From: Flavitalea plasmicola
Lineage (GTDB): Bacteria; Bacteroidota; Bacteroidia; Chitinophagales; Chitinophagaceae
Length of the DNA stretch: 64,000 nucleotides
Direction: 5' to 3'
NCBI RefSeq assembly: GCF_030546645.1
Contig: NZ_JAUOTO010000006.1
Span: forward strand, 744,001 to 808,000
Positions 10,772-28,708 of the stretch are shown here, piece after piece. Below the pieces are notes generated by a model. That model worked only from the letters and a program-made list of their open reading frames with translations. It made no database searches and was not told the origin of the DNA. Both the position numbers and the translations under genes were made by a program. Every line of letters begins with the position of its first letter. Position 1 is the stretch's first letter.

Positions 10772-11218
10772 CACAGCAGTTCCTTTACCATTATACCTTA
10801 TACACTCTACGCGATTCTTGCTTTATCAAACCTTTCGTCCTTTAAGGCATAAGAAAATTCACATATATCCCATTTCAGGTGGAACCCAATTCCCATTAGT
10901 CCATTAAACCTTTCTTTTAAGCCTGTGGAGTGCCTCTCGTTTCGGGATCAATGCCCGCAATAAGATCTTGCGACCTACCAGGCTGGGCTATTTAGTTTTA
11001 TTTGCGAACCACCTAAAATTATGAACATGCTAAGAAAGGAGTACTACAAGTTCCCTCTACACCCTGTATAAATGGCATACATCCATAATACGCAGGATGC
11101 ATCCCAAAAAGAAGCCGAAGTGTTACTAGCACTTCGGCTCTAAAAGTCCTGATAGAGCAGGACTCCAAAACCCGCCTTTACGGGGCGGACTTTGTACTAT
11201 AATCCTAAACTAAAGGTA
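10772..11218 (+). other. SusC leader region with three tandem hairpins
   Basis: A 447-bp gap with no ordinary gene. Three consecutive hairpins end 29 bp before the SusC start: stem AGCCGAAGTG at 11113-11139 (10 bp, loop TTACTAG), stem AGTCCTG at 11145-11164 (7 bp, loop ATAGAG), and stem CCGCC at 11172-11188 (5 bp). A 16-codon frame (ATG 11021, MNMLRKEYYKFPLHPV, stop 11069-11071) lies just before the first hairpin. The stems are not followed by long T runs. An attenuator or RNA-level control of susC is possible but not shown. Confidence 0.4.
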
Positions 11219-14200
11219 ATGCTTTTTTTTACTATACGTAGACGCCCTATTTCTGTGCATAATAAGGTGTCTCAACAACTGCTAAGGACGATGAAATTGA
11301 CCACCTTCTTTTTGGTAGCTATATACCTTCATCTCGGTGCCACTGGCTTTGGCCAGAAAGTAACTATTTCTGGAAAGGATCTGCCTCTGGAAAAAGTGTT
11401 TACCATGATCAAGAAACAAACGGGGTATGTGTTCTTTTATGACTATAGCATTTTTCAGGGAGTAAAGAATGTGACCTTAGATTTCAAAAATGCGAATATT
11501 GAGAATGTAATAGAGGAGTGTTTACAGGGACAAGGACTTGATTACAGTATTCTGAATAAAACCATTTTCATAACAAGAAAGCCAGAAAGAAAAATTGTAT
11601 TGAATGACCCTATAGCGGAAAAGATGTTCAAAACAAAAGGGGTTGTTTACAATGAATCTGGGCAGCCATTGTCCGGAGCCAATATCACAATTAAACAGAC
11701 GGGAAAAGGAACGCTTACGAATGCTAAAGGTGAATTCGTATTGCCTGCTGTCCCTGAAAATAGCATTTTAATTATTAGTTACGTTGGCTACAAAAGTCAC
11801 ACTTTCATAGTAAAGAATGAAGAACCCATCTCCATACGATTGACGATTGCAATGAATGATCTGGATGTACAGGTTGTGCAGGCATACGGAAGGACAAGCA
11901 AACGGCTAACCACAAGTAATATTGGCCGAGTTACTAGCGAAGAGATTGAAAGACAGCCAATAATGAACCCTTTGTTGGCTCTTCAAGGAAAAGTGGCAGG
12001 CCTGGATGTCGTGCAAACCAGTGGTTTTGCTAGTGCTCCGGTCAAAATAGAATTGAGGGGAAGAAGCGCTATTAATTCTCTTTTTACCTCCGATCCTTTA
12101 TATATCATTGATGGGGTACCTTTGACTGTCTTGGAGGTAGGAAATTCTTCCACGTACGAAAGTGGTTCGTATGGATTCTTACAATCAGGATATGGAGGAC
12201 CGGCCAATGGCCAAAGTCCGTTCTTTAGTTTGAATCCAGGGGATATTGAAAGCATAGAAGTATTAAAAGATGCCGATGCAACCGCTATTTACGGTTCAAG
12301 GGGAGCTAATGGCGTTATATTGATCAGCACCAAGAAAGGGAAGACGGGAAAGACCAAATTAGACATGCGCATCGAAAGTGGCCTCAGCAAAGTCACCAAA
12401 TACTGGCAGATGATGAACACGCAACAATATCTGCAAATGCGCAAGGAGGCACTGAAGAATGACGGCATCACTCCCTCTATAAACCATGGTGATTATGATC
12501 TTCTGCAATTTGACACAACAAAGTATACTGATTGGCAGAAAAGCTTGTACGGCGGCACAGGACGAAATATTGATGCATATGCTGGGCTTTCAGGAGGAGA
12601 TGTGCGAACCACCTTCCGGCTTGGAGCTTCTTACAATCGCAATACTAATATCCAAACTGTCAGCGGCGCAGATCAACGAGGTTCATTATCCTTCAATCTT
12701 ACACATCGTTCTGCCAATCAACGGTTCTCCGTCGGTCTGATAGGACAGTACTCCTATACTCAATCGGATATGATAAATATAGCCGCTGCAGGTACACTTC
12801 CTCCAAATGCCCCAGCAATCTATGATTCTGTGGGAAATTTGAATTATGCAGGATACGGAGGAAGCAACGCTACTGCCAGACAACGTTATCCTTTTTATAG
12901 TCTCAAGCAACCTTACACAGCCAAAACCAATTTTCTCAATAGCAATTTGGTTTTTGGCTATTTACTTTTCAAGGGATTGCAATTCACTACCAATCTGGGG
13001 TATAATAACACCCAAGCCAATACAATGTTTCTTTCACCGATTGCTTCCCAGGATCCGCTTAGTAGCCCGGTTGGTCTTAATCGCTCAGGATATAACACAA
13101 ATAAAAACTGGATAGTTGAGCCTCAAATAAGTTACGACGGTATTATAGGCGAGGGGAAGTTGTCGATCTTGGCCGGAGCATCCGTTCAGCATACCAGTAC
13201 CGGCGGAATTCTGTTGACGGGAGATGGATATACGGATGATCGCCTGTTGAAATCCATTGCCAATGCTCAAACTCAGCGCGCTAACGATCTTTTCGGCGAA
13301 TATAAATATGCAGCAGCATTTGGCAGAGTTACCTATAATCTTAAGAATAAATATATATTGAACTTCAATGGCCGTCGCGACGGATCAAGTCGTTTTGGCG
13401 AGGGAAATCAGTATGGCAACTTTGGATCGGTAGGTGCGGCCTGGATTTTTTCTGAGGAAAATTGGTTGAAGAAAGGACTTCCTTTCATTAGCTTTGGAAA
13501 ATTGAGAGGAAGCTACGGTACCACTGGTAGTGATGCTGTGGGTGATTATCAATATCTAACTAGGTGGTCGGCAAATGTCACATCGGGAATTCCTTATAAT
13601 GGTTCTCAGCCGCTGTTTCCTACCCAGCATGCTAACCCAAATTATCGGTGGCAGGTGAATAAAAAGCTTGAGGCGGCTCTTAACTTAGGTTTTCTGAAAG
13701 ACAGAATAAATCTTGAAGCAGTGTATTATCGGGACCGGTGTGGAAATCAATTGGTGAGCTTTCCTACACCATATCTTAGCGGATTTACTTCTGTCATAGC
13801 TAATTCTCCTGCATTGGTGCAGAATGCAGGATGGGAATTTACCATGGGCGCTAAACTGATAGATAAAAAAGATCTAACGTGGACGATTAACTTCAACATT
13901 TCTCTTAATAAGAACAAACTGTTAGCTTATCCAAATATTGATCAATCTCCATATGCAAGTTTGCTTATAATTGGCAAATCTTTGAATATGATTAACCTAT
14001 TCCATAATAAGGGTGTCGATCCGCAAACTGGGGAATATATCTTTGAGGATAAGAATCACGATGGAGAAATTGTGTATGACCCAGCACATCCTGATCAGAC
14101 TGATACATATGCATTTGATCGTAGCCCTAAGTACTTTGGAGGCATTGGGATGAATTTCAATTATAAGGGGTTTGCTCTAAATTTATTCTTCCAATACAAA

Positions 14201-14596
14201 AAGCAAATTGGAAAGAACGCTTTTGCCAACAGCGGCCTTGCGGGAAAGCTTGGTAACCAATCTTTGGAATTGTTTGAAAAGCATTGGCAAAAGCCAGGTG
14301 ATATTGCTTCTTATGCCAAATTTACCACAAAGACTACTGATTCTTATATACATTTTATTGCGTCAGACGGCATTTATACAGATGCATCATTTGTACGACT
14401 ATCTAACCTTTCTCTTTCTTATACTTTGCCTTCATCTATTGTCAGAAAGGCGGGAATGGAAGGTTGCACGTTCTTTATTCATACTAACAATCTGTTTGTT
14501 ATCACAAAATACAAGGGACTAGACCCTGATACGCAAGTTTTCGGTAGTATGCCTCCTTCAAAAACATTGGTAGGGGGAATAACTTTTAATTTTTAA
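11219..14596 (+). CDS. SusC/RagA-family TonB-linked outer membrane transporter with STN domain
   Basis: A large TonB-dependent transporter of 1125 residues from the ATG at 11219. The frame opens earlier at a TTG (11192), and an internal ATG at 11291 gives a shorter signal sequence. In order: signal region ending near GATGFGQ; STN domain (VTISGKDLPLEKVFTMIKKQ ...), which in this family signals to FecR; carboxypeptidase-regulatory-like beta sandwich (GVVYNESGQPLSGANITIKQ); plug domain with DADATAIYGSRGANGVI; and a beta-barrel ending in ITFNF. It moves bound oligomers or peptides across the outer membrane using TonB energy. Base composition becomes clearly AT-richer from here to about 27.8 kb. 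The substrate is unknown; no glycoside hydrolase is nearby, so a glycan is not implied. Confidence 0.95.
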   Translation: MLFFTIRRRPISVHNKVSQQLLRTMKLTTFFLVAIYLHLGATGFGQKVTISGKDLPLEKVFTMIKKQTGYVFFYDYSIFQGVKNVTLDFKNANIENVIEECLQGQGLDYSILNKTIFITRKPERKIVLNDPIAEKMFKTKGVVYNESGQPLSGANITIKQTGKGTLTNAKGEFVLPAVPENSILIISYVGYKSHTFIVKNEEPISIRLTIAMNDLDVQVVQAYGRTSKRLTTSNIGRVTSEEIERQPIMNPLLALQGKVAGLDVVQTSGFASAPVKIELRGRSAINSLFTSDPLYIIDGVPLTVLEVGNSSTYESGSYGFLQSGYGGPANGQSPFFSLNPGDIESIEVLKDADATAIYGSRGANGVILISTKKGKTGKTKLDMRIESGLSKVTKYWQMMNTQQYLQMRKEALKNDGITPSINHGDYDLLQFDTTKYTDWQKSLYGGTGRNIDAYAGLSGGDVRTTFRLGASYNRNTNIQTVSGADQRGSLSFNLTHRSANQRFSVGLIGQYSYTQSDMINIAAAGTLPPNAPAIYDSVGNLNYAGYGGSNATARQRYPFYSLKQPYTAKTNFLNSNLVFGYLLFKGLQFTTNLGYNNTQANTMFLSPIASQDPLSSPVGLNRSGYNTNKNWIVEPQISYDGIIGEGKLSILAGASVQHTSTGGILLTGDGYTDDRLLKSIANAQTQRANDLFGEYKYAAAFGRVTYNLKNKYILNFNGRRDGSSRFGEGNQYGNFGSVGAAWIFSEENWLKKGLPFISFGKLRGSYGTTGSDAVGDYQYLTRWSANVTSGIPYNGSQPLFPTQHANPNYRWQVNKKLEAALNLGFLKDRINLEAVYYRDRCGNQLVSFPTPYLSGFTSVIANSPALVQNAGWEFTMGAKLIDKKDLTWTINFNISLNKNKLLAYPNIDQSPYASLLIIGKSLNMINLFHNKGVDPQTGEYIFEDKNHDGEIVYDPAHPDQTDTYAFDRSPKYFGGIGMNFNYKGFALNLFFQYKKQIGKNAFANSGLAGKLGNQSLELFEKHWQKPGDIASYAKFTTKTTDSYIHFIASDGIYTDASFVRLSNLSLSYTLPSSIVRKAGMEGCTFFIHTNNLFVITKYKGLDPDTQVFGSMPPSKTLVGGITFNF

Positions 14597-14606: not shown

Positions 14607-16007
14607 ATGAAACGCTGTATTATATACACATACTTTTCTGCCAGTCTCATAATTTTGGGCGGGTGTAAAAAGCTCGTTCATATTGCAGAACCCACAAACT
14701 CTATTACCACGAGTGAAACTTTCAGTTCAGTTGCCCAGGCTACTGCTGCTGTTACTTCCATTTATAATGATATGAGTTATAGTTCTGGAAGTTTCTTTTA
14801 TGCAAGTGGTGCAACAACAATATATGCCGGTATGAGTGCTGATGAGCTAAACCCTTTCGGCAATGGCAGCGACCCCTATTTCACCAATGAATTGTTATCT
14901 GATGATGGCACACTTCTAAATGTTTTTTGGGCACCCTGTTATTATGATATTTATATGGCAAATGCGTGTATAGAAGGCATACAGGCATCGAAAACATTGC
15001 CGGGAGAAGTAAAGAAGCAATTGATTGGTGAGTCGAAATTTCTTCGTGCTTTCTGCTATTTTTATCTTGTAAATTTATTTGGGGATGTTCCCTTGGTTAC
15101 GTCTACTGCATTTGTTAAAACGTCTCTACTTGCAAGGACAAGTGCAGACTCAGTGTATCAACAAATGATTTCGGATTTAACTGAAGCCAAAACAACACTA
15201 CCCTCAGATTATAGCCTATTCAAGGAACGAATTCGGGCAACTTCCTGGGCGGCAAGTGCGCTCTTGGCCAGAGCATACCTTTATAAACAAAACTGGTCAC
15301 AAGCAGTTGCCGAGGCTAATCTTATTATAAATCAATCTTCTCTTTATAATTTAGATTCGAATCTTAATGATGTCTTCTTAATGAATGGCAATGAGGCAAT
15401 CTTGCAATGGCAGGATATTAACCAGGGCAACTTCCTGTATGCCACCCAGGAAGGAAATCTTTTCATTCCATATGATTCCCAGACAGCGCCTTATTATACA
15501 TTGACAGATCAGTTGCTTGGTGCGTTTGAACCAGGAGACAAAAGGCGTGAGTCATGGGTGGATAGCGTTAATATTTCAGGGACAGATCTTTTTTATCCAC
15601 ATAAGTATAAAGTAAGAGATGCATCGGGAGGCAGCATTACCGAATACTATACAATATTACGATTAGCTGAGCAATATCTCATTCGGGCAGAAGCAAATGC
15701 GCAAATGAATAAGACATTTGATGCTATTGGTGATTTGAATATTATTCGTAAAAGAGCGGGCCTTTCTGAGTTGGATCCCTCTCTCTCTCAGGCACAAGTA
15801 CTGGAAGCTGTGGCTCAGGAAAGGAGAATTGAATTTTTCGCAGAATGGGGACATAGATGGTTTGATCTTAAAAGAACTGGCAAGGCGGATGTTGCTCTTT
15901 CGACTATTAAACCTTCGTGGCAAAAAACGGATACACTATACCCCATTCCCCATCAGGAACTATTAACAGATCCAAATTTAACCCAGAATCCAGGATATGG
16001 GAAATAA
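14607..16007 (+). CDS. SusD/RagB-family nutrient-binding outer membrane lipoprotein
   Basis: A 466-residue lipoprotein with signal peptide and lipobox LGGC (lipidated Cys at residue 20). The SusD-like N-terminal region (YNDMSYSSG, then LIGESKFLRAFCYFYLVNLF) and the TPR-containing C-terminal RagB/SusD domain (YYTILRLAEQYLIRAEANAQ, DAIGDLNIIRKRAGL, QERRIEFFAEWGHRWFDLKR) are all present. It caps the SusC channel and captures the ligand. It starts 10 bp after susC, in the normal order. The shorter length among SusD proteins and a non-glycan neighbourhood leave the ligand open; a peptide ligand would fit the protease downstream. Confidence 0.95.
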   Translation: MKRCIIYTYFSASLIILGGCKKLVHIAEPTNSITTSETFSSVAQATAAVTSIYNDMSYSSGSFFYASGATTIYAGMSADELNPFGNGSDPYFTNELLSDDGTLLNVFWAPCYYDIYMANACIEGIQASKTLPGEVKKQLIGESKFLRAFCYFYLVNLFGDVPLVTSTAFVKTSLLARTSADSVYQQMISDLTEAKTTLPSDYSLFKERIRATSWAASALLARAYLYKQNWSQAVAEANLIINQSSLYNLDSNLNDVFLMNGNEAILQWQDINQGNFLYATQEGNLFIPYDSQTAPYYTLTDQLLGAFEPGDKRRESWVDSVNISGTDLFYPHKYKVRDASGGSITEYYTILRLAEQYLIRAEANAQMNKTFDAIGDLNIIRKRAGLSELDPSLSQAQVLEAVAQERRIEFFAEWGHRWFDLKRTGKADVALSTIKPSWQKTDTLYPIPHQELLTDPNLTQNPGYGK

Positions 16008-16023
16008 TAAAAATCATACTACG

Positions 16024-17253
16024 ATGTCAAGATCATTTTTTTTTCTTTTAATTAGCCAGCTTGCAGGACCTGTTTCACAAGCCCAGAATGCAAAATATAG
16101 TATCACTGGACGTATAGAAGGCCTTAAGGAACATGAAAAAGTCACAATGATGTTGTCGAATAGTAAAGGGTTGGGGTCCTATACAGACTTTTGGGTTGTT
16201 TCTGATACTGCTTCGGTGAAGAATGGAGAGTTCTATCTTAGTGGGACAGTCCCTGAAGGACCGCGTAGGTATATGATGATCTTCGACAAACATGATGGCA
16301 AAAAGATTAATTTGTATTTAAACAACTATGAATCGATCACAATAAATAGCAGCAACATCGATCAGATTCCGAGTCCCACTCTTGAAAGATATATATCCAT
16401 CAAAGGTAGCCCAACTAATTATTCATTATTGTGTCTGGTACCTGCTGAGGAAATCTATTATGAAAGCATTGGAAAGTTGAACCGATATGTGCAAAAATTG
16501 AAAGACTCCATCGGATTTGACGGACCTATGCTAGGTAATATTTTTACTCTTCGGGAAGAGCTTAATAAGACATTTTATTACCAGATATTTTACGGCGATA
16601 AAGATCCAGACGATTCGCGTACACCTGATATTAAGGAATCTAACATTGTTCTGCCTACTTATTATTCCAGCTTTCAACGGTCGGGACATGCCGCCTATTG
16701 GGCAGAATTTTATAAAAATTTGGATAGTGCTAAAAAGAACAGTTTTTTAGGTAAATGGATGAAAGAACTGACGGCACTATGTATTGGACAGCCTTTCCCG
16801 GCGTTCAGTTTTTCGAACGCTGAAGGTCGGCAGGTGACATCAAATGAACTTCTAGGGCGTAATAAAATGACTTTAATACATTTTTGGGCTACGCATTCAT
16901 ATGAAAGAAGGAAGTTTCAATATGAGCTACGGGACCTCTATAAACAATATCATGATAAGGGACTGGATGTTGTCGGAATTTCATCCGATATAGATATGGA
17001 AAGCTGGAAAGAGGCGCTGACAATGGAAAAGTATCCGTGGCTTAATCTTATCAATCCAGGGGGAAAAATTATAGAAAAGGTATACAGGGAATATGGAAAC
17101 TACAGAAGTGAAAATACGACCAATGTCCTATTGGATAGGTCTGGAAATATCGTGGCCTGGGATGTAAACGGGGCCGAATTAGAATGGAATTTATGGAAAT
17201 ATCTCGGAGACGGTAAATCATCGACTCAATCTGTTACTTCCGTCAATAGATAA
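16024..17253 (+). CDS. DUF4369 plus thioredoxin-like (TlpA) protein lacking the CXXC
   Basis: A 409-residue secreted protein from ATG 16024 (an earlier in-frame ATG at 15997 overlaps the SusD stop). It has a signal peptide ending near PVSQAQ, then an N-terminal DUF4369 domain (YSITGRIEGLKEHEKVTMML), a helical linker, and a C-terminal AhpC/TlpA thioredoxin fold from IGQPFPAFSFSNAEG. The active site is degenerate: where TlpA proteins read WCxxC this one reads H291-S-Y-E-R295, so both catalytic cysteines are gone. It is therefore unlikely to be a thiol oxidoreductase; a binding or scaffold role in the periplasm is more likely. It sits between susD and a subtilase gene, 16 bp after the former, and belongs to that operon. 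Confidence 0.9.
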   Translation: MSRSFFFLLISQLAGPVSQAQNAKYSITGRIEGLKEHEKVTMMLSNSKGLGSYTDFWVVSDTASVKNGEFYLSGTVPEGPRRYMMIFDKHDGKKINLYLNNYESITINSSNIDQIPSPTLERYISIKGSPTNYSLLCLVPAEEIYYESIGKLNRYVQKLKDSIGFDGPMLGNIFTLREELNKTFYYQIFYGDKDPDDSRTPDIKESNIVLPTYYSSFQRSGHAAYWAEFYKNLDSAKKNSFLGKWMKELTALCIGQPFPAFSFSNAEGRQVTSNELLGRNKMTLIHFWATHSYERRKFQYELRDLYKQYHDKGLDVVGISSDIDMESWKEALTMEKYPWLNLINPGGKIIEKVYREYGNYRSENTTNVLLDRSGNIVAWDVNGAELEWNLWKYLGDGKSSTQSVTSVNR

Positions 17254-18885: not shown

Positions 18886-19164
18886 CTATTTGTAATATAC
18901 CCTGTGAGCTCCAGAAATGGCAGTAACCAATGTTGCAAGTTTAGTGTTGCCAACATTGGTTTTTAACATAACTGTTCTTAAAGAGCCAGATTGAACGGTA
19001 GTGTAGTTTGTCGTGCTTGCGGACAGAGATCCTGAGAGACCAGAAGCTGCGCCAGCAATTTTTACGTCGAAATTAGCGAATTTCTTGTTGGCTTTAGTTG
19101 CCAGGAAACCACCAATTGCAAGTGCAAAAGCAGCACATCCAATGAAAATCTTTGACTTTTTCAT
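18886..19164 (-). CDS. Small peptide 1 of four, candidate RiPP precursor
   Basis: A 92-residue peptide. The N-terminus is a charged start (MKKSK), a hydrophobic stretch (about 6-22, with LAIGGFLATKAN) and then a basic KKF. The middle (about 28-53) is Gly/Ser/Thr/Ala-rich; the C-terminal block runs TTVQSGSLRT, then KTNVGNTKLAT, and ends HRVYYK. Three more peptides with the same plan lie directly upstream, and a LanKC gene precedes them. There is only one cysteine (C10, inside the hydrophobic stretch), so no thioether could form in the C-terminal part. The hydrophobic N-terminus could be a signal peptide or membrane anchor. Precursor role is inferred from context, with high Ser/Thr content in agreement. 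Confidence 0.65.
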   Translation of the reverse strand: MKKSKIFIGCAAFALAIGGFLATKANKKFANFDVKIAGAASGLSGSLSASTTNYTTVQSGSLRTVMLKTNVGNTKLATLVTAISGAHRVYYK

Positions 19165-19209
19165 AATTCAAGTTTTTTATTTTAAAATATATGCCTACTC
19201 TCTTATAAA

Positions 19210-19246
19210 GGTTTTCAGCTTCCCCTTCCCCGCTATTGCTAAAACC
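19210..19246 (-). other. Hairpin in the gap between small peptides 2 and 1
   Basis: On the minus strand GGTTTTAGC pairs with GCTGAAAACC (one bulged G) around a purine-rich, G-rich loop (about 18 bases with GGGGAAGGGG). It lies about 45-80 bp upstream of the peptide 1 start, in a 181-bp gap that is long compared with the rest of the operon. It could be an attenuator, a processing site or a stability element that changes the ratio of the peptides. Confidence 0.35.
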
Positions 19247-19345
19247 AGCAGGATTATTGCGCAATATTTTTAATTAAGTATAAATTCTCTTTATTATAAC
19301 AAATTTGTAATTCTTAATATCAACAATGCAAATCCGATACTACCA

Positions 19346-19621
19346 TTATTTATAATATACTCGGTGAGAGTTATTAATCGCAGTGACCATGGTTGCCAAT
19401 TTGGTATTCCCCACATTTGTTTTTAACATTGCGGTTCTTAATGATCCGCTTTGAACAGTGGTGAAGAATTGAGAGTTCGCTGTTTCTGATCCCGATAGAC
19501 CAAAAAAGGTTTTGAATCGAATATCAAAATCGGCATATCTTTTATTAGCTCTTACTGCTAGGTAGGCACCGAAAATCATTTCAGTAACCCCAATTAATAT
19601 GAATAGCCTGTATTTTTTCAT
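19346..19621 (-). CDS. Small peptide 2 of four, candidate RiPP precursor
   Basis: A 91-residue peptide from the ATG at 19621 (an ATG two codons earlier, at 19627, is also possible). It shares the plan of peptide 1: MKKYR, hydrophobic stretch with GAYLAVRAN, then RYADFDIRF. Its last 36 residues are nearly identical to peptide 1 (TTVQSGSLRT, MLKTNVGNTKLAT, VTAI, HRVYYK), whereas residues about 30-52 differ. It contains no cysteine at all, so lanthionine or labionin rings are impossible, although Ser/Thr dehydration or phosphorylation would be. It most likely arose by duplication with peptide 1. Confidence 0.65.
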   Translation of the reverse strand: MKKYRLFILIGVTEMIFGAYLAVRANKRYADFDIRFKTFFGLSGSETANSQFFTTVQSGSLRTAMLKTNVGNTKLATMVTAINNSHRVYYK

Positions 19622-19700
19622 GATCATTTTATTAGTGTTATAACAACTGATGTTTTATTCGATTTCCATTCCAGATTGACACTTTCAGAAGTACGGGTAA

Positions 19701-19985
19701 TTATTTATAGTATACTTTATGCCTACCATTAATTGCCGTAAACATGGTTGCTAACTTGACGCCGCTGATCGCGGATTTTATCACTACTGTTCTATATCCT
19801 GAACTTATGACAGTTGTATAGTCGTAACTGTCAGCTGAAAGATCACCTATAAGGCCACCGGCTACTGTTCCATAGAATCTTACCTGAAAATAGGAGTACT
19901 TGCGATTTATTCTGGCGAAAAGACGTCCGCCTATTGCTATCATCAAAAAAGTGATAGAAACAAATATTTTCCCTTTGGTAGTCAT
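19701..19985 (-). CDS. Small peptide 3 of four, candidate RiPP precursor
   Basis: A 94-residue peptide from the ATG at 19985. The frame extends to 20042, but the extra residues are polar, contain two cysteines and have no counterpart in the paralogues, so the inner start (MTTKGKIF) is preferred. It has a hydrophobic stretch with IAIGGRLFARIN, then RKYSYFQVRF, a Gly-rich middle, and the C-terminal block in a diverged form: YTTVISSGYRT, KLATMFTAI, ending HKVYYK. From the inner start it has no cysteine. It is the most divergent of the four. The gap to peptide 4 is about 166 bp. Confidence 0.6.
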   Translation of the reverse strand: MTTKGKIFVSITFLMIAIGGRLFARINRKYSYFQVRFYGTVAGGLIGDLSADSYDYTTVISSGYRTVVIKSAISGVKLATMFTAINGRHKVYYK

Positions 19986-20151
19986 GACCTGCCTTTTTTT
20001 AGAACCGTGTTTACAAATAAACATGCTATGGGTGCAATTCATAGCTGTAGGTGTTTATTTTTTAATATCTCGTGCTAATCTCCTGTTTGTTCTTACTGAG
20101 AAAGATATGAGTGTAATCAAGAGCAACATTGATTTAGCTAACGAGGAAGAG

Positions 20152-20421
20152 CTATTTACAATATACCCGGTGCACCTGATTGACCGAAGTTACAAATGTG
20201 CATAGTTTATTACAGCTCGCACATACCAATAATAAAGTTCTTAAAGATCCAGTTTGCACCGTTGTGAAATTAGTTGTGCTTACGTTTAAAGCTCCTGTTA
20301 TCGTAGGGCAGGCAGCCTTGATGGAAAAGCTTACAAATTTTCGGTTTGCTTTTGTTGCTATGAATCCACCAATTGCCAGGATAACAGCAGAGGTAGCAAT
20401 AAGAAACTTTGTTTTTTTCAT
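20152..20421 (-). CDS. Small peptide 4 of four, cysteine-rich candidate lanthipeptide precursor
   Basis: An 89-residue peptide starting 19 bp after the LanKC stop, so it is certainly in the same operon. It shares the N-terminus (MKKTKFLI, LAIGGFIATKANRKF) and the block FTTVQTGSLRT with its paralogues, but where they read KTNVGNTKLAT it reads VCASCNKLCTF, and it ends HRVYCK. Cysteines are at 38, 67, 70, 74 and 88, with several Ser/Thr upstream, so this is the only member able to form thioether rings by a class III route. It is the best candidate for the true LanKC substrate. The precursor role itself is inferred. Confidence 0.7.
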   Translation of the reverse strand: MKKTKFLIATSAVILAIGGFIATKANRKFVSFSIKAACPTITGALNVSTTNFTTVQTGSLRTLLLVCASCNKLCTFVTSVNQVHRVYCK

Positions 20422-20440
20422 AATTTAATGTTTAGAGATT

Positions 20441-23149
20441 TTAGTTTAAAAGTCGATAGCCTAGTCTATTGGTATGAAAACAGCGTAGTAGAAAATGGAT
20501 GATACCACTGGTGCCTATCATAAAATCGGCTGTCGGCGTACTTCTCTCTTCCATTATCCAATATTTACCTTTCTCTGGACCACTATTGTAACATGTGTGA
20601 TTATAGACTTTTGCAATCCAATTCGCCCTATTTTCCCATTCGGAATTGCCGAATACCCGAAATGCCTCCAGATATAGTTCACCTAATCCTGCTAGTCCGG
20701 TATCTTGCGAGAAGTTGGTCTTGACCATACAAGGAGGATATTGCATTAATGCCCGCTCTGCTAGAAATTTATAGTTTTCGTTCCCGATGACTTCGTAGGC
20801 TTTTATGAAAACCAGAATTATACCTTTTCTTTCGTCTCCTAGTTCAACCCCATCAAGGACCATTTTTTTGAATATTTCTCCTTTAAACAGATATTCCAGA
20901 TTATGTGTTCTTTTCAGTATATAGTTTAGAGTTTTATTAATTGATTCTAATAATTGATTACTGGGATATTGTTTATAATAAGCAAGAAGAAAGAAAAGTA
21001 TACCTGGTATGCCATTGCCAAAGCGCATATTTTTTAATCCTTTTTTATTATCCGCCTCATTCAGGATCAACCAAGAACCATCCTTTTCCTGTCTTTTTAA
21101 TAAAAGAAGAACAACCGCGTCCAATTGTTGACGAAAAAAATCTGATTCAACCAATTCTATGCATTGAAGTAAAGCAATACCTTGTCCGGTTACACCGGTA
21201 GTAAGATCCAGATTGTCATCCTTCAATTCTAATAACGACCTGATCCAACTACGATTTTTCTTGGAATTTTCCATTAGGCCGCCCCTGATGGCTTCTGCGA
21301 GGCTAAGTGCTATCCCCGATGCACCATTGTAAAGGCCAGGGGATAAATTGGGGAGACAACTAAAATAATTTTCCTCTATGAATTGCCAGCTTTTAGTATA
21401 ATGAGATAGACACGAGTCAACATTAAATCCCAAGAGATGTGCCCTTGAAATGACATACAAAACACCAGCCAGGCCCTGGTATAAACCTCCATAGACTGAG
21501 TATTCCTTTTGACTATGTGACCCTGTCGTAATATTATCTATATTTTGAGAATACCATATGTCGCCAGACTGGACAATGGGCTGATTGATCAATCCTTGAA
21601 GACTTGCTGTAATTAAATTCTCTAGTTCATTTCTGCCAAACATTGCAGGAGGCTTTTCTTGGGATACATCGGCTTTAACGATGCTTACACGATACTCATT
21701 CAGGATGTTTTGAATGATATTTAGTTCAGGCCGCTCTGCTGGATTTTGGTTCATACAGGCACCAATCATTGCCGCAAGAGAATGGTTGCCAATAAATGCA
21801 TTTAAATTACTAATCAAAAGTTTATTATCACTCGTATCAAAACGTATGGGTGAAAGGCCGGTGAATAGAATAGTCATTAAAGCGCCTAAGCCATAAATGT
21901 CCTCTTTAGGAGAAGGGGCCTTGGCTGCCTGTTGTTGTGGGGACATAAACCCGGGAGTTCCGGATTCAAAGGGGGGATGAGGATATGCTTTTTTGACGGA
22001 ATAGGCTAATTCCATATCAATGAGTATGATCTGACCCCTGGAGTCAATTAGAAAATTCCCAGGAGCCATATCGCGATGGATATAACCATGATGATGGAGA
22101 TTTTTAAGGACAGAGACGATTTGCAAAATGTAATCAAGTAACTCTGATTTTTCCTCAGAATGTAATTCGAACCAGCTTTTACTACTGAAATTCAGCTTCC
22201 TCATCCTGTCATACAATGAACATCCCTTTATGAATTCCATTACAAGGTAGCTATCTCCGTCTTCCACAAAGAGATCATAGATTTTCGGAAGCGGAATAAT
22301 GCCAGCTAGTTCCTTATGCAATTCCTGTTGCCAAATCAGCCTGTCATAAACGTCCCGGCCTGCCTCATCGGATACCATGTTTTTTCTTCCCTGTTTAATA
22401 ACACATTGTACAACACGAAATAGGCTTTTAACATAAATCCCTTTATATACATCTCCCTTACTGATATCGGGTTTTAAAAGGAATAAGGGTTTATATATGT
22501 GATTCAATACGGTTTTTGGTTTTTTGGGAACCGTACTGGCTAATACATCAAATGGCCAATTAATGCCGTGAGGCGGCTGAAAAGGAATGGAATAGGTATC
22601 TTTAATCAATTTACCAGCTGGGTCATATAAATATTCGTTTTTATTGCCATTAGCGTCAGTAAGCAATAATGGATGAAAACGACTATAGCGTGTATATACT
22701 ACATTGCCTAGCGCGATATCAGTTGGGATGACAGGGCCTTTAATAGCTGTAGTTGCTGCCACAAGTTTTTTTGCTATCAAAAGGGCCAATTCGTCATTAT
22801 CCGGATATACAGTGATTATTTTACCCAGTTGAATTATGCCAAGCCCTCCATTGAGCAGCGTCATTGCTGTTTCTTTATCTGCGGGAATTGTAAAGGAGAC
22901 TTTTTCCGAAACCAGAATAGGGATGACTGTTTGAAAAAGATCATTTAATTGGGAGGCTACAGCAGATAAATGAATCACCCATCCCTGAATATCCGATATA
23001 TCCCCTGCCTGCCAAAAGTAGTCTTTGGCCTTAAATAGTTCAACAAAAGAGGCTAGTAGACCGGAATAGTTTTCCGGCGAGATGGTCGATTCCTCATTCA
23101 TTAAGACTGCGGTATTGGGATATAGTTGTATGGATGAAATTTCAGACAT
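20441..23149 (-). CDS. Class III lanthipeptide synthetase-like protein (LanKC)
   Basis: A 902-residue three-domain protein. Residues about 55-160 resemble the phosphoSer/Thr lyase domain of LanKC/LanL (WVIHLSA with H60, GKIITVYP with K110, VYTRYSRF with R154). Residues about 235-490 are a protein kinase (YLVMEFIKG, H359-R-D360, N365, and D378-M-E in place of DFG, then KEDIYGLG). Residues about 550-895 are a LanC-like alpha-toroid with six glycine-rich repeats (YGGLYQGLAG, YNGASGIA, TTGVTGQGIA, RFGNGIPG, TGLAGLGE, MIGTSG). The LanC zinc ligands (Cys and Cys-His) are absent, which places it with class III rather than class IV. Family members phosphorylate Ser/Thr of a precursor, eliminate to dehydroamino acids, and sometimes cyclise onto Cys. 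It sits between glycosyltransferase-like genes and four small peptide genes. Confidence 0.85.
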   Translation of the reverse strand: MSEISSIQLYPNTAVLMNEESTISPENYSGLLASFVELFKAKDYFWQAGDISDIQGWVIHLSAVASQLNDLFQTVIPILVSEKVSFTIPADKETAMTLLNGGLGIIQLGKIITVYPDNDELALLIAKKLVAATTAIKGPVIPTDIALGNVVYTRYSRFHPLLLTDANGNKNEYLYDPAGKLIKDTYSIPFQPPHGINWPFDVLASTVPKKPKTVLNHIYKPLFLLKPDISKGDVYKGIYVKSLFRVVQCVIKQGRKNMVSDEAGRDVYDRLIWQQELHKELAGIIPLPKIYDLFVEDGDSYLVMEFIKGCSLYDRMRKLNFSSKSWFELHSEEKSELLDYILQIVSVLKNLHHHGYIHRDMAPGNFLIDSRGQIILIDMELAYSVKKAYPHPPFESGTPGFMSPQQQAAKAPSPKEDIYGLGALMTILFTGLSPIRFDTSDNKLLISNLNAFIGNHSLAAMIGACMNQNPAERPELNIIQNILNEYRVSIVKADVSQEKPPAMFGRNELENLITASLQGLINQPIVQSGDIWYSQNIDNITTGSHSQKEYSVYGGLYQGLAGVLYVISRAHLLGFNVDSCLSHYTKSWQFIEENYFSCLPNLSPGLYNGASGIALSLAEAIRGGLMENSKKNRSWIRSLLELKDDNLDLTTGVTGQGIALLQCIELVESDFFRQQLDAVVLLLLKRQEKDGSWLILNEADNKKGLKNMRFGNGIPGILFFLLAYYKQYPSNQLLESINKTLNYILKRTHNLEYLFKGEIFKKMVLDGVELGDERKGIILVFIKAYEVIGNENYKFLAERALMQYPPCMVKTNFSQDTGLAGLGELYLEAFRVFGNSEWENRANWIAKVYNHTCYNSGPEKGKYWIMEERSTPTADFMIGTSGIIHFLLRCFHTNRLGYRLLN

Positions 23150-23159: not shown

Positions 23160-26100
23160 TTAATTCCGAAGATCTATATATCGTGTGGACAATAGTGCAA
23201 ATACAAAGGATAGAGATGCTGGGAATACCTGGTATCGAAGGACAACAGGGGAAGCAAATATGCTGAAGCCCATATTCAAAATCCAAAACACTAATATCAA
23301 TGCCAGAACAATGGTGTAAGAAGGTAAAGCTATTTTTATTCCGTTGAACAAGAGGAAACCGGCTAAACTGATGACTAGGAATAAATTCACCAGCGCATTA
23401 AATATTGGGTACCAATTTAAAGATGTGACGTCATGATCTTTATAATGATGAGAAATCCTAAGCGTCTTGTAATCAAACCACTCTTTAGCTAGCCTATCTA
23501 CACTGTCTTCTCCCATATTGTATACGCCTAAAAATTCTATAGGAGGAACCGCAAATTTAATTGCATTCGGCCAGAGGAAATATTGAGCAAAGCTCAGTGG
23601 ATATTTCTTAATTAGAAAGAATGCGTAGTCCTGATACAATGGTCCTTCTGCAGCCCATTTTTTGAAATACGGAGACGTGCTATCTCCTTTCCATTCTCGC
23701 ATCATGTACTGTAATAGCGGAGCTCGCGGACTCCACAGATAAAAATAATTACGTAAAGTATCCAATCTGGATTGTTTAACCCGTAATATGGTGTCTTTAT
23801 GCTGGCGGACCATATTTTCAAGTTTTGCAAATCGCTCGGGAAATTTATCATTAGGTTCATTTTTTACATGTTCGTATGCATATAAAGCATTATTTGCCAG
23901 TTGCCATCCTCCAAAGGCTGAGAATTGTCGATAACCTGTTACTTTATACATCTTTTGGCTGGTATATAGGACAGAAAAGGATAGCAGCATGAAACTAAAT
24001 GCAATCCCTGCTATCTTAAACCAAGAATGCCGCTTGGTAAAAATGAATGCAAGGGTGGAAATTAAAGGGTAATAAATTGCATTATACCGTAGCGTAAACA
24101 CTAATAGTAGCAGGACGGCATGAATAAAGATGTGTGATGTCATGGGACGACAGATTATCCAGATGAGCTGCGCTATCCATAAAGTGCTTAAACCTATAAA
24201 TGTCGCATCAGCTGATATATAGTTCGCCAAATAATGGCTTATAGGGTTAAAAAGAAAGAAAACATACAGTATCAAGAAGATGATCTTGCTGGGTTTGAAA
24301 AAATATTGAACGGTAAAAAGAAGGAACAAGCTGCTACATTGAATGAAGAAGTATTGAAAAGCCACTAGCAGCATGTCCGAATGAGAGAATGCACTGAAAA
24401 TTCGAAGGAACTTCGAATAGGCTACAGGCCATGTATTTACATCCGAATTCCGATAGGCTGCCTCTAGGTACGAATAGGAATCAACGAAATAATTTGCATA
24501 TGGGTATAGAAATTTAAAAATAGCGAATTGAGCAAGCATTGCTACGGCTGCTAATAATAAATAAGCTCTATTCCATTTATTTTTCCACAAAAAGCTCTTA
24601 AAAGAATATTCGGGAAGTGGATCTTTCCGGGACAAGGTTGGTTCATTGAGGATAATCTCTTCTGGAATGGATTTCTTTTCCTCATGATAATCCTGCTCGG
24701 TATTGATGGACCATAGATTGTCCTTAGAGATGTTTCCTGCTACAATATTGTCTACTGCTACCATTGCTGTCAACATAGAGTGGTCTGCGTTATTGTATTT
24801 ATGCATCCCATTTCGACCAACCAGGAATAAATTGCAAAATTGATCTGTATATTCTCGGATCTTTCCAAACTCGCTGAACGTTCCGAAATAAGCCGGATAC
24901 GTTTTTTCCATGCGACGGACGGTTATATCCAGCACATCTTCTGCCCTGGCAAGGGCCATTTTTTCCAATTCTAGGATAGCAATACGCTGAATCGCCTCGT
25001 CGTCCAAGGCCCAGAAACTATCTGTTTTGTCACAGAAGTATTCCATACCAATCCATGTTTTGGACGGATCAGCAATCATTCCATCTCCCCAATTATTGTA
25101 GATCATCAACCTTCCTACTTTTACATCCCGCTCCTGGATGTATATCCAATTGTCTTTAAGTTGCAATTTTTTGTAGATTCCATCTTTATTTCGAGCCGAT
25201 AGCTTTTCCAAAAGGATACCAACATTAATAAAATCTCGGTATTGCAAGCCAGCAGCTATAGCTTGGACATCAGTAGGCGCGGGCGAGTCCATGCCTGCAA
25301 TCAATTCCTGAACAGGCATAGTGGAGAAAAAATAATCACCTTCCCAGGCCCCTGCCTGTCCGGTAACTGAGCTTACAGTATTGATCATAGTGATCTCCCC
25401 ATCCTTATGGTATATTTTTTCCACCTGTTGATTGAGGAAAATTTTCCCGCCCATTTCCTGCACTTGTCTGGCTACTTCTTCCCAGAGGGCACCAGGCCCC
25501 TTTTTCGGGTATAGAAATTGCTCGATAAGACTTGTTTCTGTTGCTTTCTGATTGATGCCGGCATCTTTTTTCTCCCCCTTTCGAAAGCTTCGGAGTGCCT
25601 GAAATATTGCTTTGCTGAGAGATACTCCCTTGATTCGCTGAGCACCCCATTCTGAAGAAATTGAGTGACAAGGTACTCCCCATACTTTTTCAGTATAGTC
25701 TTTAAAAAATAGCAGATAAAGCTGTCGACCAAATTTATTGATCAGAAAGTCTTCAAGGTTTTTTTCATTTTTAATTGGGAATAGTCTTATCCATAAGAAC
25801 GAAAGAAGAATCTTCCAAGTCCGGAGCACACCTAATGTTCGCAATGTCTCTAGACTTAGTTGGATCGGGTATGCAAAAAAACGGCGTAGAAAATAAATTC
25901 GTGTGAGACGCTGGATTACTAACATTACTTTATCCGAATCTTTTCTTTTACCTATAGCCGTGGCACCAGGATTAGTTTCAATACTTCTTTGTTTGTTCTG
26001 ATAGGCGATTGTTATATTGGTTTTTTCTCCTTCTAATGGCATTATATTCAGCCACCAATCCATGACTCTGTCGGACTTGGAAAAGAAACGGTGCGGCCCC

Positions 26101-26261
26101 ATATCCATTCTATTACCTTTGTAATTAATTGTACGAGATATTCCTCCAATCTCTCCACTTTTTTCCAGAATCACAGGAATGATATCTGTTCTTTTGAGTA
26201 ATTCGTAAGCGGCTGTTAGACCGGCGGGACCTGCCCCGATTATGATTGCTTTTTTACTCAT
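23160..26261 (-). CDS. Flavin oxidoreductase fused to a GT-C-like membrane domain
   Basis: A 1033-residue fusion. Residues 1-about 525 are an FAD-dependent NAD(P)-binding oxidoreductase of the protoporphyrinogen oxidase/UDP-galactopyranose mutase-like group: dinucleotide fold [13 protein letters not shown], then [20 protein letters not shown], and a C-terminal FAD-contacting stretch [19 protein letters not shown]. Residues about 565-1033 are a polytopic membrane domain with some ten helices and an extracytoplasmic [14 protein letters not shown] loop, similar to the separate protein encoded just upstream. The start overlaps that gene's stop (ATGA) and its stop is 10 bp before LanKC. The reaction is unknown: sugar or lipid-linked sugar transformation coupled to transfer is one reading, and peptide modification another. 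Confidence 0.8.
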
Positions 26262-27802
26262 AACACTGGTTTTAAGGGTGGCTGTAGTGAGGAATTGAGA
26301 GCAACTCTTTCCGAACCTTGCAATAGCATGAGAGATACCGCCATTAAAATGATCATTGGGAAGAATTGATACCTGAAAACTATAATTGTCGCAGTTACGC
26401 AGAAACAGAAATTTAGAGTGAGGAAGCTGCCACAGAGTAAAAGGAATCGATTCGTAGGTCTGTCGGTAGTTTTATATTTTCGGGTTGCCAGGAAATGGAG
26501 GCCTCGGATAACAAGATAAAGATTCAGGAGGAAAAACAAAGGCGGTATGGGGAATAGGAGAACCCCCTGCAGACGTTTCGAGATGGACTTTGTTTTTAAA
26601 CCTTTAAGATTGAACCAAAGACCTGCTATTTCTTCAACGCTGTCTTGCCCTAAGTTATATACTTCAAGTTTTTCCAAAGGGGTTATGAAATAATTTTTTG
26701 CATTTAACCACATATAATCTCTAATATATGCGGACGGATTATGTTTTATTAGATAACTGCCGTATTGGGAAAATACAGCAGATGCCTTTCCCCACCCGAT
26801 TACTATATCTTGTTGATTCGTAAGAGAATAATGTTTAAACAAATATTGCTTTAAGGGTGCTTCTGATTGTCTGATGAAGTAATTTCCAGTATATTCTCCC
26901 AGATAGTCGTGAAATTCGGGGACGACACCATTGTAGAAGTTTTTCGAAAGGCTATCCAACTCACGCGTTTCATTAGAAGGCAAATCACTGGGATCAACAT
27001 TCAGGTTTCTGTACATATAAAGTGCATTATTAGCCAACTGCCATCCTGTGAATAATGAGAATTGACTAGTTCCGGTCATTTGACGGGCAACCGACCGGGT
27101 GTGCAGAACAAATGGAATAATTAGAAGGAATGGTAAGAGTATACCTGCAGCCCTATATTTCCAGTTTCTAGCACATATTAAAAAGGCAACTATCGCCAAA
27201 AGGGGATAATAATAGGCATTGTTCCGTGTAGTAAAGCAAAGAAACAATAATAAAGCATGTACAAAAATGTTATAAACCATAGGCTTTTGCATTAACCATA
27301 TTAGTTGAGTAAACCAACCTAGACTAAGAGCTGCAAACAAGGGATCACTGTTGACATAATTTCCGAGGTAGAGAAATAGTGGATTTGCAAAAAGGAAAAT
27401 GAATAGAATTAATTGATAAGTCTTTCCTGGTTTGTAAAAATATAGTATAGAAAGAAATAAATAGAGGGATGCTCCCTCTAGAATGAAATATTGAAATGCT
27501 ACTAGTAATGTGTGGGATTGGGTAATTGAATGAAAAAGACTCAAAAACTTCGAATACCCGATCGGCCAGATACTCACATCCAAATTCGCATAAGCTGCAT
27601 AAAGATAACTATACGAATCCGAAAAAAAATCTGGAAAAGGATACAGTATTTTAAATATAACAAACTGAACAATCGTCCCTCCCAGCGCAATCAACAAATA
27701 CCTCCGATTAACCTTATTCTTCCAGATAAAGTTCAGAAATGACTCGGCAGATCCACGAGATTCCTGCGCGACAGACTGCGGTAGAACAAACGCCTGGTTC
27801 AT
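26258..27802 (-). CDS. GT-C-like polytopic membrane protein
   Basis: A 514-residue membrane protein from the ATG at 27802 (the frame stays open to a TTG at 27829). About ten hydrophobic helices are followed by a soluble C-terminal-facing part. The first extracytoplasmic loop holds [17 protein letters not shown], with an acidic residue in the place expected for polyprenyl-phosphate-sugar-dependent GT-C enzymes. It aligns along its whole length with the membrane half of the next gene (shared phrases: [20 protein letters not shown] or [21 protein letters not shown] or YNMGEDSVD), so the two are paralogues. With the GT2 gene upstream (30-bp gap) it suggests a lipid-linked sugar donor and its transferase. 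The acceptor is unknown. Confidence 0.75.
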
Positions 27803-27832
27803 AGTACTAATAGGATAAAAGTTAAACAATAC

Positions 27833-28708
27833 TCATGCTGCACCAACAACTTCAGGCTCCGGCACCTTAATATCCGCCGGTATTTTCGAAAGAAACGAAT
27901 ACTTGATAATACACCACAACGTCCTCACCCCGTCCTTCCACCCAATCTTCTTCCCCTCCTTATAAGTCCGCCCATAATAAGAAATCCCCACCTCATAGAT
28001 CTTCGCTCCCTCCACCTGTGCAATCTTCGCCGTCACCTCCGGCTCAAACCCAAACCGTTTTTCCCTCAGCGGGATCTGCTGTATCAGCGAAGTCCTGAAC
28101 GCCTTATAGCCCGTCTCCATATCCGTCAGGTTCAGATTAGAGAACATATTGGAGAAAAACGTCAGGCACCGGTTACCTATCGTATGCCAGAAGAATAATA
28201 TTCTATGAGGCTTACCTCCCATAAACCGCGAACCATATACCACATCCGCATACCCATTCACAATAGGCTCCAGCAAAGTGTTATATTCTCTCGGATCATA
28301 TTCCAGGTCGGCATCCTGGATCAATAGATAGTCGCCAACAGCATGCTGAATACCTGTATGAATAGCTGCTCCTTTTCCCTGGTTGACGGTATGCCTTACA
28401 TATCTTATAGAGACCGAAGGATTCTCTTCTATATACTCCCGGGCAACCAATTCAGTGTCATCTGAAGAACAATCATCCACGATGATAATATCCTTAGCGA
28501 CATTACCAATCAGCTCCACCTGGTTGATCTTTTCCAAAATAATGGAGATCGTTGCTTCCTCATTGAAAGCCGGAATGATGATAGACAGTTTTTGAATATG
28601 GCTGCGGTGGGATGAGTACCGGATGTGTTTGGGAGCTTTGCGCACGGGCACAGCAGCTCCTGCAGATTGAAGAGTCTCATACATAGAATAAAAGTTTATC
28701 CCCTCCAT
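27833..28708 (-). CDS. GT2 glycosyltransferase, dolichyl-phosphate mannose synthase-like
   Basis: A 291-residue family 2 glycosyltransferase. After a variable N-terminus (about 1-38) the GT-A core follows: LSIIIPAFNEEATISIILEK, DIIIVDDCSSDDT, GKGAAIHTGIQHAVGDYLLI and the metal-binding QDADLEYDP. Further on are GSRFMGG and ETGYKAFRT, common in polyprenyl-phosphate glucosyl/mannosyl transferases. No membrane helix pair is evident at the C-terminus, as in DPM1-type enzymes. It is the first gene of the minus-strand operon that ends with the small peptides and would supply a lipid-linked sugar to the GT-C-like protein. Its base composition is less AT-rich than the genes behind it. Confidence 0.9.
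   Translation of the reverse strand: MEGINFYSMYETLQSAGAAVPVRKAPKHIRYSSHRSHIQKLSIIIPAFNEEATISIILEKINQVELIGNVAKDIIIVDDCSSDDTELVAREYIEENPSVSIRYVRHTVNQGKGAAIHTGIQHAVGDYLLIQDADLEYDPREYNTLLEPIVNGYADVVYGSRFMGGKPHRILFFWHTIGNRCLTFFSNMFSNLNLTDMETGYKAFRTSLIQQIPLREKRFGFEPEVTAKIAQVEGAKIYEVGISYYGRTYKEGKKIGWKDGVRTLWCIIKYSFLSKIPADIKVPEPEVVGAA

What the first reader, a model, noticed from the sequence alone, without database searches (positions are those of the whole stretch)
18886..23149. A class III lanthipeptide synthetase next to four paralogous small peptides in a Bacteroidota genome
The 902-aa protein has all three LanKC domains and lies 19 bp upstream of the first of four paralogous 89-94 aa peptide genes on the same strand. 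The peptides share an unusual plan: a hydrophobic, signal-like N-terminus, a variable Gly/Ser/Thr middle and a conserved C-terminal block (TTVxSGxxRT ... KLAT ... VYYK). Class III systems are best known from actinomycetes, their leaders are not normally hydrophobic, and their cores are not normally the most conserved part. This looks like a distinct RiPP family.
Basis: partly seen in the sequence, partly recalled or inferred. Interest (0 to 1): 0.88.

Follow-up and report, generated by a model that had tools for sequence, protein, structure and literature searches.

The report
Lanthipeptide synthetase relative beside small peptides
A bacterial genome, apparently Bacteroidota, carries an enzyme built like a lanthipeptide synthetase next to four small, apparently exported peptides; comparison with related genomes suggests that it may still work as a kinase while parts of the usual ring-forming chemistry are altered, and that the peptides belong to a wider peptide system tied to an outer-membrane importer.

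Summary
In detail: a 902-aa lyase-kinase-LanC protein lies 19 bp upstream of four paralogous, signal-peptide-like peptides. The link is real: peptides of the same plan lie near 24 of 26 lyase-containing homologues (window included) from one family.

"A class III lanthipeptide family" fits only partly. A lyase lysine that ThurKC needs is K in 8 of 8 reference synthetases but in 1 of 26 relatives here, and the window enzyme lacks a second. Zinc ligands are absent, two peptide-linked relatives have no cyclase, and three of four window peptides have no Cys after the leader. Kinase residues are kept in 25 of 26.

The peptides resemble DUF6520 proteins. Such peptides also occur without LanKC in a recurrent neighbourhood: SusC/SusD convergent with peptides, often with MauE, thioredoxin-like or peptidase genes. 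I read the locus as that module with a recruited synthetase acting on Ser/Thr of Sec-type peptides: phosphorylation or dehydration more likely than Cys thioethers. Product and role are untested.

The parts
20441..23149 (-). LanKC-like protein, 902 aa: altered pThr-lyase domain (about 30-205), Ser/Thr kinase (about 215-485), zinc-less LanC-like domain (about 540-895)
   Evidence: Pfam RamC_N/Pkinase/LANC_like above cut-off; active-site alignment
20152..20421 (-). peptide 1, 89 aa, five Cys after the leader; sub-threshold DUF6520 match
   Evidence: PF20130 22.4 bits, cut-off 25.4; Cys count
19701..20042 (-). peptide 2, ORF 113 aa, likely 94 aa from the inner ATG at 19985; no Cys in that form
19346..19627 (-). 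peptide 3, 91-93 aa, no Cys
18886..19164 (-). peptide 4, 92 aa, one Cys in the leader, none after it; weak DUF6520 match (17.1 bits)
23160..26261 (-). 1033 aa: amine-oxidase-like flavoprotein (NF005546, residues 2-530) fused to a part similar to the DUF6020-like protein; ends 10 bp before LanKC
26258..27829 (-). 523-aa multi-TM protein, DUF6020 (membrane glycosyltransferase look is my inference); overlaps the next gene by 4 bp
   Evidence: PF19484 29.6 bits, cut-off 28.3; relatives within 6.5 kb in 19 of 26 type A loci
27833..28708 (-). family 2 glycosyltransferase, first gene of the presumed operon
   Evidence: PF00535
17274..18803 (+). S8 subtilase, signal-like N-terminus by inspection, convergent; candidate maturation protease
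   Evidence: PF00082 2.6e-50; S8-like genes in 4 and S9-like genes in 6 of 26 type A loci
15997..17253 (+). DUF4369 + AhpC/TSA thioredoxin-like protein
14607..16007 (+). SusD-like lipoprotein
   Evidence: ORF; SusD identity by inspection, no profile was run on this protein; similar proteins within 6.5 kb in 17 of 26 type A loci
11192..14596 (+). SusC-like TonB-dependent receptor with N-terminal STN signalling domain
   Evidence: PF07715, PF13715, PF07660
9551..10771 (+). FecR-like anti-sigma factor
   Evidence: by inspection of the translation; no profile run
8762..9340 (+). ECF sigma factor
   Evidence: by inspection of the translation; no profile run

Best explanation
The locus is one copy of a recurrent module: an outer-membrane SusC/SusD importer with sigma/anti-sigma control and a secreted protease, convergent with genes for small Sec-type peptides that resemble DUF6520 proteins. 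In one family the module has recruited a lanthipeptide-synthetase homologue. I propose that the LanKC-like protein acts in the cytoplasm on Ser/Thr of the part of the peptide behind the leader. The unfolded peptide is then exported by Sec, its signal is removed, perhaps with help of the neighbouring S8 or S9 protease, and the finished peptide is used outside the cell and recognised by the paired SusC/SusD. The kinase step is the part best supported by conservation. Elimination to Dha/Dhb may persist in relatives but is doubtful in the window enzyme, and Cys thioether rings are not possible in the mature part of three of the four window peptides, which lack Cys there. Shown here: gene content, linkage, residue losses. 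Inferred: substrate relation, Sec export, phosphorylation, SusCD recognition.
For: Linkage: peptides in 24 of 26 type A (lyase-containing) LanKC loci, downstream on the same strand, directly or behind a MauE gene, in about 20 of 26 by my reading. Same surroundings without LanKC: of six true DUF6520 regions outside the family (L172-L177), MauE is in 6, SusC in 6, SusD in 5, S9 in 5 and LanKC in 0. MauE: 22 of 49 copies in six genomes lie within 6 kb of a peptide, 0.45 expected. Lyase: K65 equivalent is Ile/Val/Met/Leu in 25 of 26, K in 8 of 8 references; in ThurKC K65A and R163A gave no turnover and K94A only unmodified peptide (PMC10604976, passages); the window has Val58 and Thr87. The lyase domain as a whole is about as conserved as the kinase (35% vs 37% mean identity, 24 rows), so it is not simply decaying. 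Kinase: catalytic Lys, Asp, Asn and DxE Asp kept in 25 of 26 type A and in 16 of 16 lyase-less type B rows. Cyclase: zinc ligands absent in every A and B row with a LanC part, and the LanC part is missing in two peptide-linked relatives, L035 (463 aa) and L180 (489 aa). Leader: lipobox in 0 of 61, an AxA-like site at the end of the hydrophobic stretch in 60 of 61 (the pattern is very permissive).
Against: No chemistry was tested and no signal-peptide predictor was available. H67 (18 of 26), D152 (21), R163 (22) and K117 (25) equivalents are mostly kept, and K94 is K or R in 20 of 26, so a working lyase with changed phosphate binding is possible. The alpha-C Glu of the kinase is Gln in 26 of 26 A, 16 of 16 B and one of 8 references, which could weaken the kinase. 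Ser+Thr content does not differ between LanKC-linked and other peptides (0.231 vs 0.240, p=0.77), so composition gives no sign that LanKC acts on them. The profiles behind 24 of 26 were built mostly from those same loci. SusC/SusD genes are very common in these genomes (28-119 SusD matches each). The window itself lacks MauE and the small TlpA. Lyase-less type B relatives lack the peptides in 15 of 16 loci.
Confidence: 0.45

Rival explanations
1. A genuine class III-like lanthipeptide system: the enzyme phosphorylates, eliminates and cyclises, giving Lan/Lab rings where Cys is present, and linear Dha/Dhb or His/Lys cross-links where it is not.
For: All three domains fused; several lyase residues kept; Ser/Thr-x2-Ser/Thr-x2-5-Cys in 21 of 61 peptides; a LanKC that joins His to Dhb is known (noursin, PMC10206099, abstract and sections 6 and 13) and the four window peptides share a C-terminal His.
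Against: K65 lost in 25 of 26, K65 and K94 both lost in the window enzyme; cyclase absent in L035 and L180 with peptides still there; class III/IV leader motifs missing; no ABC exporter gene seen among the window ORFs of 8.7-28.7 kb (by inspection); loci with MauE or the small TlpA have a median of two or more Cys per peptide in 17 of 17, loci without in 2 of 7 (my tabulation, tested), which points to disulfides, though the five Cys-poor loci form one branch (support 92/74), so one event.
Confidence: 0.27
2. The synthetase is a scaffold, chaperone or regulator for the peptides, without a covalent product.
For: Lyase residues and zinc ligands lost, alpha-C Glu to Gln; in L084 the kinase Lys, Asp and DxE Asp are lost.
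Against: Catalytic kinase residues kept in 25 of 26; L084 lies on a 6-kb contig on which no peptide was found.
Confidence: 0.13
3. The neighbourhood is coincidental: the peptides are ordinary DUF6520-like secreted proteins and LanKC acts on something else.
For: Peptides occur without LanKC in 15 of 20 fetched LanKC-free regions; type B relatives have peptides in only 1 of 16 loci; no compositional difference.
Against: 24 of 26 type A loci, with synthetases only 29-45% identical to the window's, in seven genera, keep peptides nearby.
Confidence: 0.15

Closest known systems
Class III lanthipeptide synthetases (ThurKC type)
   Same: Lyase-kinase-LanC fusion; zinc ligands missing; DxE in place of DFG
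   Different: K65 (and K94 in the window) not conserved; no LELQ-type leader; peptides with long signal-like N-termini; no ABC transporter seen; NCBIfam class III score 240, cut-off 575
Class IV synthetases (LanL)
   Same: Best NCBIfam score, 353 bits over residues 52-893
   Different: Below the 650-bit cut-off; zinc ligands C/C/H absent, present in both LanL references; no ALQxL leader; separate branch
MNIO RiPPs of Bacteroidota (chr/dyb clusters; preprint PMC12636315, passages seen)
   Same: Cytosolic modifying enzyme, precursors with secretion signal peptides, SusC/SusD genes frequently nearby and in one cluster a prolyl oligopeptidase with secretion signal
   Different: Unrelated enzyme (MNIO), C-terminal recognition motif, other peptides
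Methanobactin uptake (MbnT2 with MbnI2/MbnR2; PMC9601215, passages seen)
   Same: A modified peptide taken back by a TonB-dependent receptor with an N-terminal signalling domain and an ECF sigma/anti-sigma pair
   Different: Other biosynthetic enzymes, no SusD (recalled); uptake in the window system is only inferred
DUF6520 (PF20130)
   Same: Short proteins with a hydrophobic N-terminus; MauE/SusCD/S9 surroundings in the regions fetched
   Different: Window peptides score below the cut-off (22.4 and 17.1 bits against 25.4; two not at all)

Membership tests
Class III lanthipeptide (LanKC) system | Lyase, kinase and LanC domains fused in one protein | tested here: met
Class III lanthipeptide (LanKC) system | LanC domain without zinc ligands | tested here: met
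   absent in the 25 type A rows with a LanC part and in 16 type B rows
Class III lanthipeptide (LanKC) system | Catalytic lyase residues of ThurKC (K65, H67, K94, D152, R163) | tested here: not met
   Window: V58, H60, T87, D144, R154: two of five lost. K108 and R191 are also absent, but they are absent in the class IV chain too
Class III lanthipeptide (LanKC) system | Active kinase residues | tested here: met
   K252, D360, N365, D378 present; alpha-C Glu replaced by Q274
Class III lanthipeptide (LanKC) system | Leader with LELQ-type motif | tested here: not met
   LxLQ in 1 of 61 peptides, 0 of 4 in the window
Class III lanthipeptide (LanKC) system | Cys in the core for Lan/Lab rings | tested here: not met
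   3 of 4 window peptides have no Cys after the leader; peptide 1 has five
Class III lanthipeptide (LanKC) system | Lan/Lab-containing product | not testable with these tools
   Needs mass spectrometry
Class IV lanthipeptide (LanL) system | Zinc ligands C/C/H in the LanC domain | tested here: not met
Class IV lanthipeptide (LanL) system | NCBIfam LanL equivalog cut-off (650 bits) | tested here: not met
   353 bits
DUF6520 (PF20130) | Gathering score 25.4 bits | tested here: not met
   22.4, 17.1, none, none
SusCD-MauE-peptide neighbourhood seen | SusC/SusD convergent with signal-like peptides; MauE or thioredoxin-like partner | tested here: inconclusive
   SusC, SusD-like gene and convergent peptides present; MauE and the small TlpA absent in the window, a larger thioredoxin-like protein present

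The most novel reading that the evidence does not exclude
A lanthipeptide synthetase turned into a dedicated peptide kinase: it marks Sec-exported peptides that are recognised by their own SusC/SusD receptor and sigma/anti-sigma pair, inside an undescribed peptide system (DUF6520-like, seen here in several families of the class) that normally relies on disulfides and, in the window's branch, has given up both Cys and the MauE/thioredoxin partners.
Probability: 0.27. Interest if true: 0.82.

Novelty: new variant of a known kind. Interest (0 to 1): 0.6.

Why it matters
If right, class III/IV synthetases are not only ring makers: one lineage would keep the kinase and lose parts of the elimination and cyclisation chemistry. 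It would also show a ribosomal peptide route through Sec rather than an ABC exporter, tied to SusC/SusD, in a phylum from which a 2020 survey counted only the pinensins as isolated lanthipeptides (PMC7268733, passages). That survey discarded ORFs without Cys, so Cys-free peptides such as those here would not have been seen by it. In the held library no paper contains the term DUF6520, and none holds lanthipeptide, Chitinophagaceae and class III together; subscription papers are mostly not in that library.

Tried and rejected
Rejected or empty: the genome-contig scan for LanKC gave two distant kinase matches only. A Bacteroidota promoter pattern that I recalled (TTTG-N17-23-TANNTTTG) gave 1 match against 1.97 expected. 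Peptide structure prediction failed (mean pLDDT 41.7), so no fold search was run. The idea that LanKC-linked peptides are richer in Ser/Thr failed (p=0.77), and the idea that they are poorer in Cys than other peptides failed (5 of 24 against 1 of 15 loci, p=0.38). The Cys/MauE link: a crude table gave 15/2 against 2/5, p=0.0086; with Cys recounted and tabulated by hand by per-locus median it is 17/0 against 2/5, p=4.9e-4; but the five Cys-poor loci form one branch (92/74), so it is a single event. NF038150 over 392 phylum genomes matched 54 at E<=1e-30; in the rows listed all but the window's own genome are partial, mainly over the kinase, one over LanC only. LanKC over 396 class genomes at E<=1e-40 matched the window's genome and one lyase-kinase protein in G060. 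In both, at most two candidates per genome were scored. Literature searches; of the listings I opened passages, abstracts or sections of five papers.

Choices and dropped rows: L035 and L084 were left out of the identity table and the tree (24 of 26 A rows used). L031:8111-8296, L033:12033-12446 and L029:12464-12694 were left out of the list of 50 peptide references, of which 40 went into alignment A2. Peptides shorter than 60 or longer than 164 aa were dropped. 47 peptides were used. The 20 LanKC-free regions were chosen by me from peptide or DUF6520 hits away from known LanKC genes, so the absence of LanKC in the 14 from this family is partly by choice; the six DUF6520 regions L172-L177 were taken without looking for LanKC. 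Those six are 6 of the 14 matches over the cut-off. Genes were taken as the longest ORF from the first start codon. One search stopped with a script error after listing the synthetases and was redone.
Full report
Observation. The ORFs are as described: a 902-aa protein at 20441-23149 (-) and four peptide genes below it on the same strand, the first after 19 bp. Pfam finds RamC_N, Pkinase and LANC_like above their cut-offs. NCBIfam scores the class IV model (353 bits) above class III (240), both far under their cut-offs of 650 and 575. The four peptides are clearly paralogous. A profile of these four alone found 16 further hits at E<0.01 among 1,770 ORFs of the window and 12 other LanKC regions; all 16 are small peptides and they lie in 6 of the 12 regions. 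The genome holds a second LanKC-like gene, 37% identical.

Neighbourhood. On the minus strand, gaps or overlaps of 3 to 19 bp suggest one operon: GT2 (27833-28708), a DUF6020-like membrane protein (26258-27829), an amine-oxidase/DUF6020-like fusion (23160-26261), LanKC and the first peptide, followed by the other three at wider spacing. Convergent to it on the plus strand are an ECF sigma factor, a FecR-like protein, a SusC with STN domain, a SusD-like protein, a DUF4369/thioredoxin-like protein and an S8 subtilase (sigma, FecR and SusD named by inspection). I saw no ABC transporter gene between 8.7 and 28.7 kb (by inspection).

How far it reaches. In 33 genomes of the genus, the window's own included, 11 full-length homologues besides the window's gene and one lyase-kinase protein of 463 aa were found, in six genomes. 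In 294 genomes of the family, 25 genomes of 8 genera had a match at E<=1e-60. I fetched 41 other loci and sorted the synthetases into type A (lyase part present, 26 with the window) and type B (no lyase domain, 697-774 aa, 16). In 396 class genomes only the window's genome and one lyase-kinase protein of the same family matched at E<=1e-40 (at most two candidates per genome scored). The organisms are unnamed in the data; Bacteroidota is inferred from SusC/SusD and FecR gene content, and Chitinophagaceae is a guess that no call tested.

Peptides go with type A. By two profiles at E<=0.01, 24 of 26 type A loci hold peptides, 61 in all; the exceptions are L065 and L084, the latter on a 6-kb contig. 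By the same test type B has them in 1 of 16. The profiles were built mostly from these loci, so the count is partly circular; the window-only profile is the unbiased part. Between loci the first 28 residues are better conserved (34%) than the rest (25%); within the window it is the reverse (37% and 49%). pN/pS was below 1 in both parts of all nine loci tested, from 0.12 to 0.90.

The peptides without LanKC. The peptide profile also hits elsewhere in the same genomes, and two window peptides match DUF6520 below its cut-off. In six genomes there are 32 peptide clusters: 13 with LanKC, 14 with MauE and no LanKC, 5 with neither. 22 of 49 MauE genes lie within 6 kb of a peptide, 0.45 expected. Of 35 genomes searched with the peptide profile, 17 of 17 with type A LanKC and 9 of 18 others had at least one hit at E<=0.01, the others with one or two hits each and E-values from 5e-7 to 0.0075. 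I fetched 20 regions away from LanKC: none has a LanKC-like gene (partly by choice), 15 have a peptide at E<=0.01, 18 have a SusC- or SusD-like gene and 12 a MauE-like gene. The six DUF6520 regions from outside the family have MauE in 6, SusC in 6, SusD in 5, S9 in 5 and LanKC in 0. SusD-like genes stand within 6.5 kb of 17 of 26 type A genes, against 0.146 per locus by chance. So the peptide-SusCD neighbourhood is wider than LanKC, and LanKC looks like an addition in one family.

The enzyme's active sites. In ThurKC, K65A and R163A gave no turnover, K94A only unmodified peptide and K108A no Dha/Dhb, while H67, D152, K117 and R191 variants were impaired (PMC10604976, passages). In type A the K65 position is I, V, M or L in 25 of 26 and K in 1 of 26; all 8 references have K. 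K94 is K in 13, R in 7 and other in 6, Thr in the window. H67 is kept in 18 of 26, D152 in 21, R163 in 22, K117 in 25. K108 and R191 are absent in type A, but also in the class IV chain, so they do not tell. The domain is nevertheless about as conserved as the kinase (35% and 37%), so it is kept for something. Kinase Lys, catalytic Asp, Asn and DxE Asp are kept in 25 of 26; the alpha-C Glu is Gln in all type A and B rows and in one of 8 references. Zinc ligands are absent in every A and B row with a LanC part. Two lyase-kinase proteins without LanC, L035 and L180, still have peptides beside them; a third, L179, has none at E<=0.01. The tree of kinase plus cyclase joins A and B (100/99), next to a plasmid protein of Haematobacter that keeps lyase Lys and zinc ligands (100/98), apart from LanL and LanKC references (several long branches, midpoint root).

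Cys and redox partners. Among the 24 type A loci with peptides, those with MauE or the small TlpA have a median of two or more Cys per peptide in 17 of 17, those with neither in 2 of 7 (my tabulation, test). The five others, the window among them, form one branch of the tree (92/74), so this is one joint loss, not five. It fits disulfides made by MauE/thioredoxin in most of the system and suggests that Cys is not what LanKC works on in the window's branch. Three of the four window peptides have no Cys after the leader, peptide 1 has five. Cys-poor loci are not significantly commoner with LanKC than without (5 of 24 and 1 of 15, p=0.38).

How it may work. The leaders are hydrophobic with a loosely AxA-like end in 60 of 61 (a permissive pattern), no lipobox in 61, LxLQ in 1 of 61 and ALQxL in 0 of 61. 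I infer Sec export after modification in the cytoplasm, protease trimming in the periplasm and use outside the cell together with SusC/SusD. A close precedent in layout is the MNIO RiPPs of Bacteroidota with secretion signals, SusC/SusD and, in one cluster, a prolyl oligopeptidase with secretion signal (PMC12636315, passages). The sigma/anti-sigma/TonB part resembles methanobactin uptake (PMC9601215, passages). Against a special role of LanKC on these peptides stands that Ser+Thr content is the same with and without LanKC.

Verdict. The find is real and worth a bench test. It is a new variant: a class III/IV-like synthetase with altered lyase, zinc-less and sometimes missing cyclase, tied to Sec-type DUF6520-like peptides and SusC/SusD. 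It should not be filed as a class III lanthipeptide system until a product is seen.

Noticed in passing
L068, L069, L071-L073, L075, L076, L080, L085-L092: Sixteen kinase-LanC proteins of 697-774 aa with no lyase domain, each near a small HTH-like protein and most near a 305-aa and a 265-aa protein, nine near MauE: a second conserved neighbourhood of unknown purpose.
   Followed up: partly
L123 5938-8676 (Haematobacter massiliensis plasmid pOT1-4): Nearest named relative of the family, 97% coverage, 27% identity, with zinc ligands and lyase Lys kept; a possible clue to the origin by transfer.
   Followed up: partly
L163 8556-11087: Seven or more tandem DUF6520-like peptides, mostly with four Cys, behind an amine-oxidase fusion, TlpA and MauE, no LanKC.
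   Followed up: partly
L035 9632-11023, L180 1338-2807, L179 7981-9384: Lyase-kinase proteins of 463-489 aa without a LanC domain; two of three have peptides next door.
   Followed up: partly
window 45848-54604: A single 2918-aa ORF, large and carbohydrate-active-looking by inspection.
   Followed up: no
window 41656-43068: Protein with a radical SAM look (CxxxCxxC) by inspection.
   Followed up: no
window 31541-35367: Glycerol-use genes by inspection (channel, dehydrogenase, kinase).
   Followed up: no
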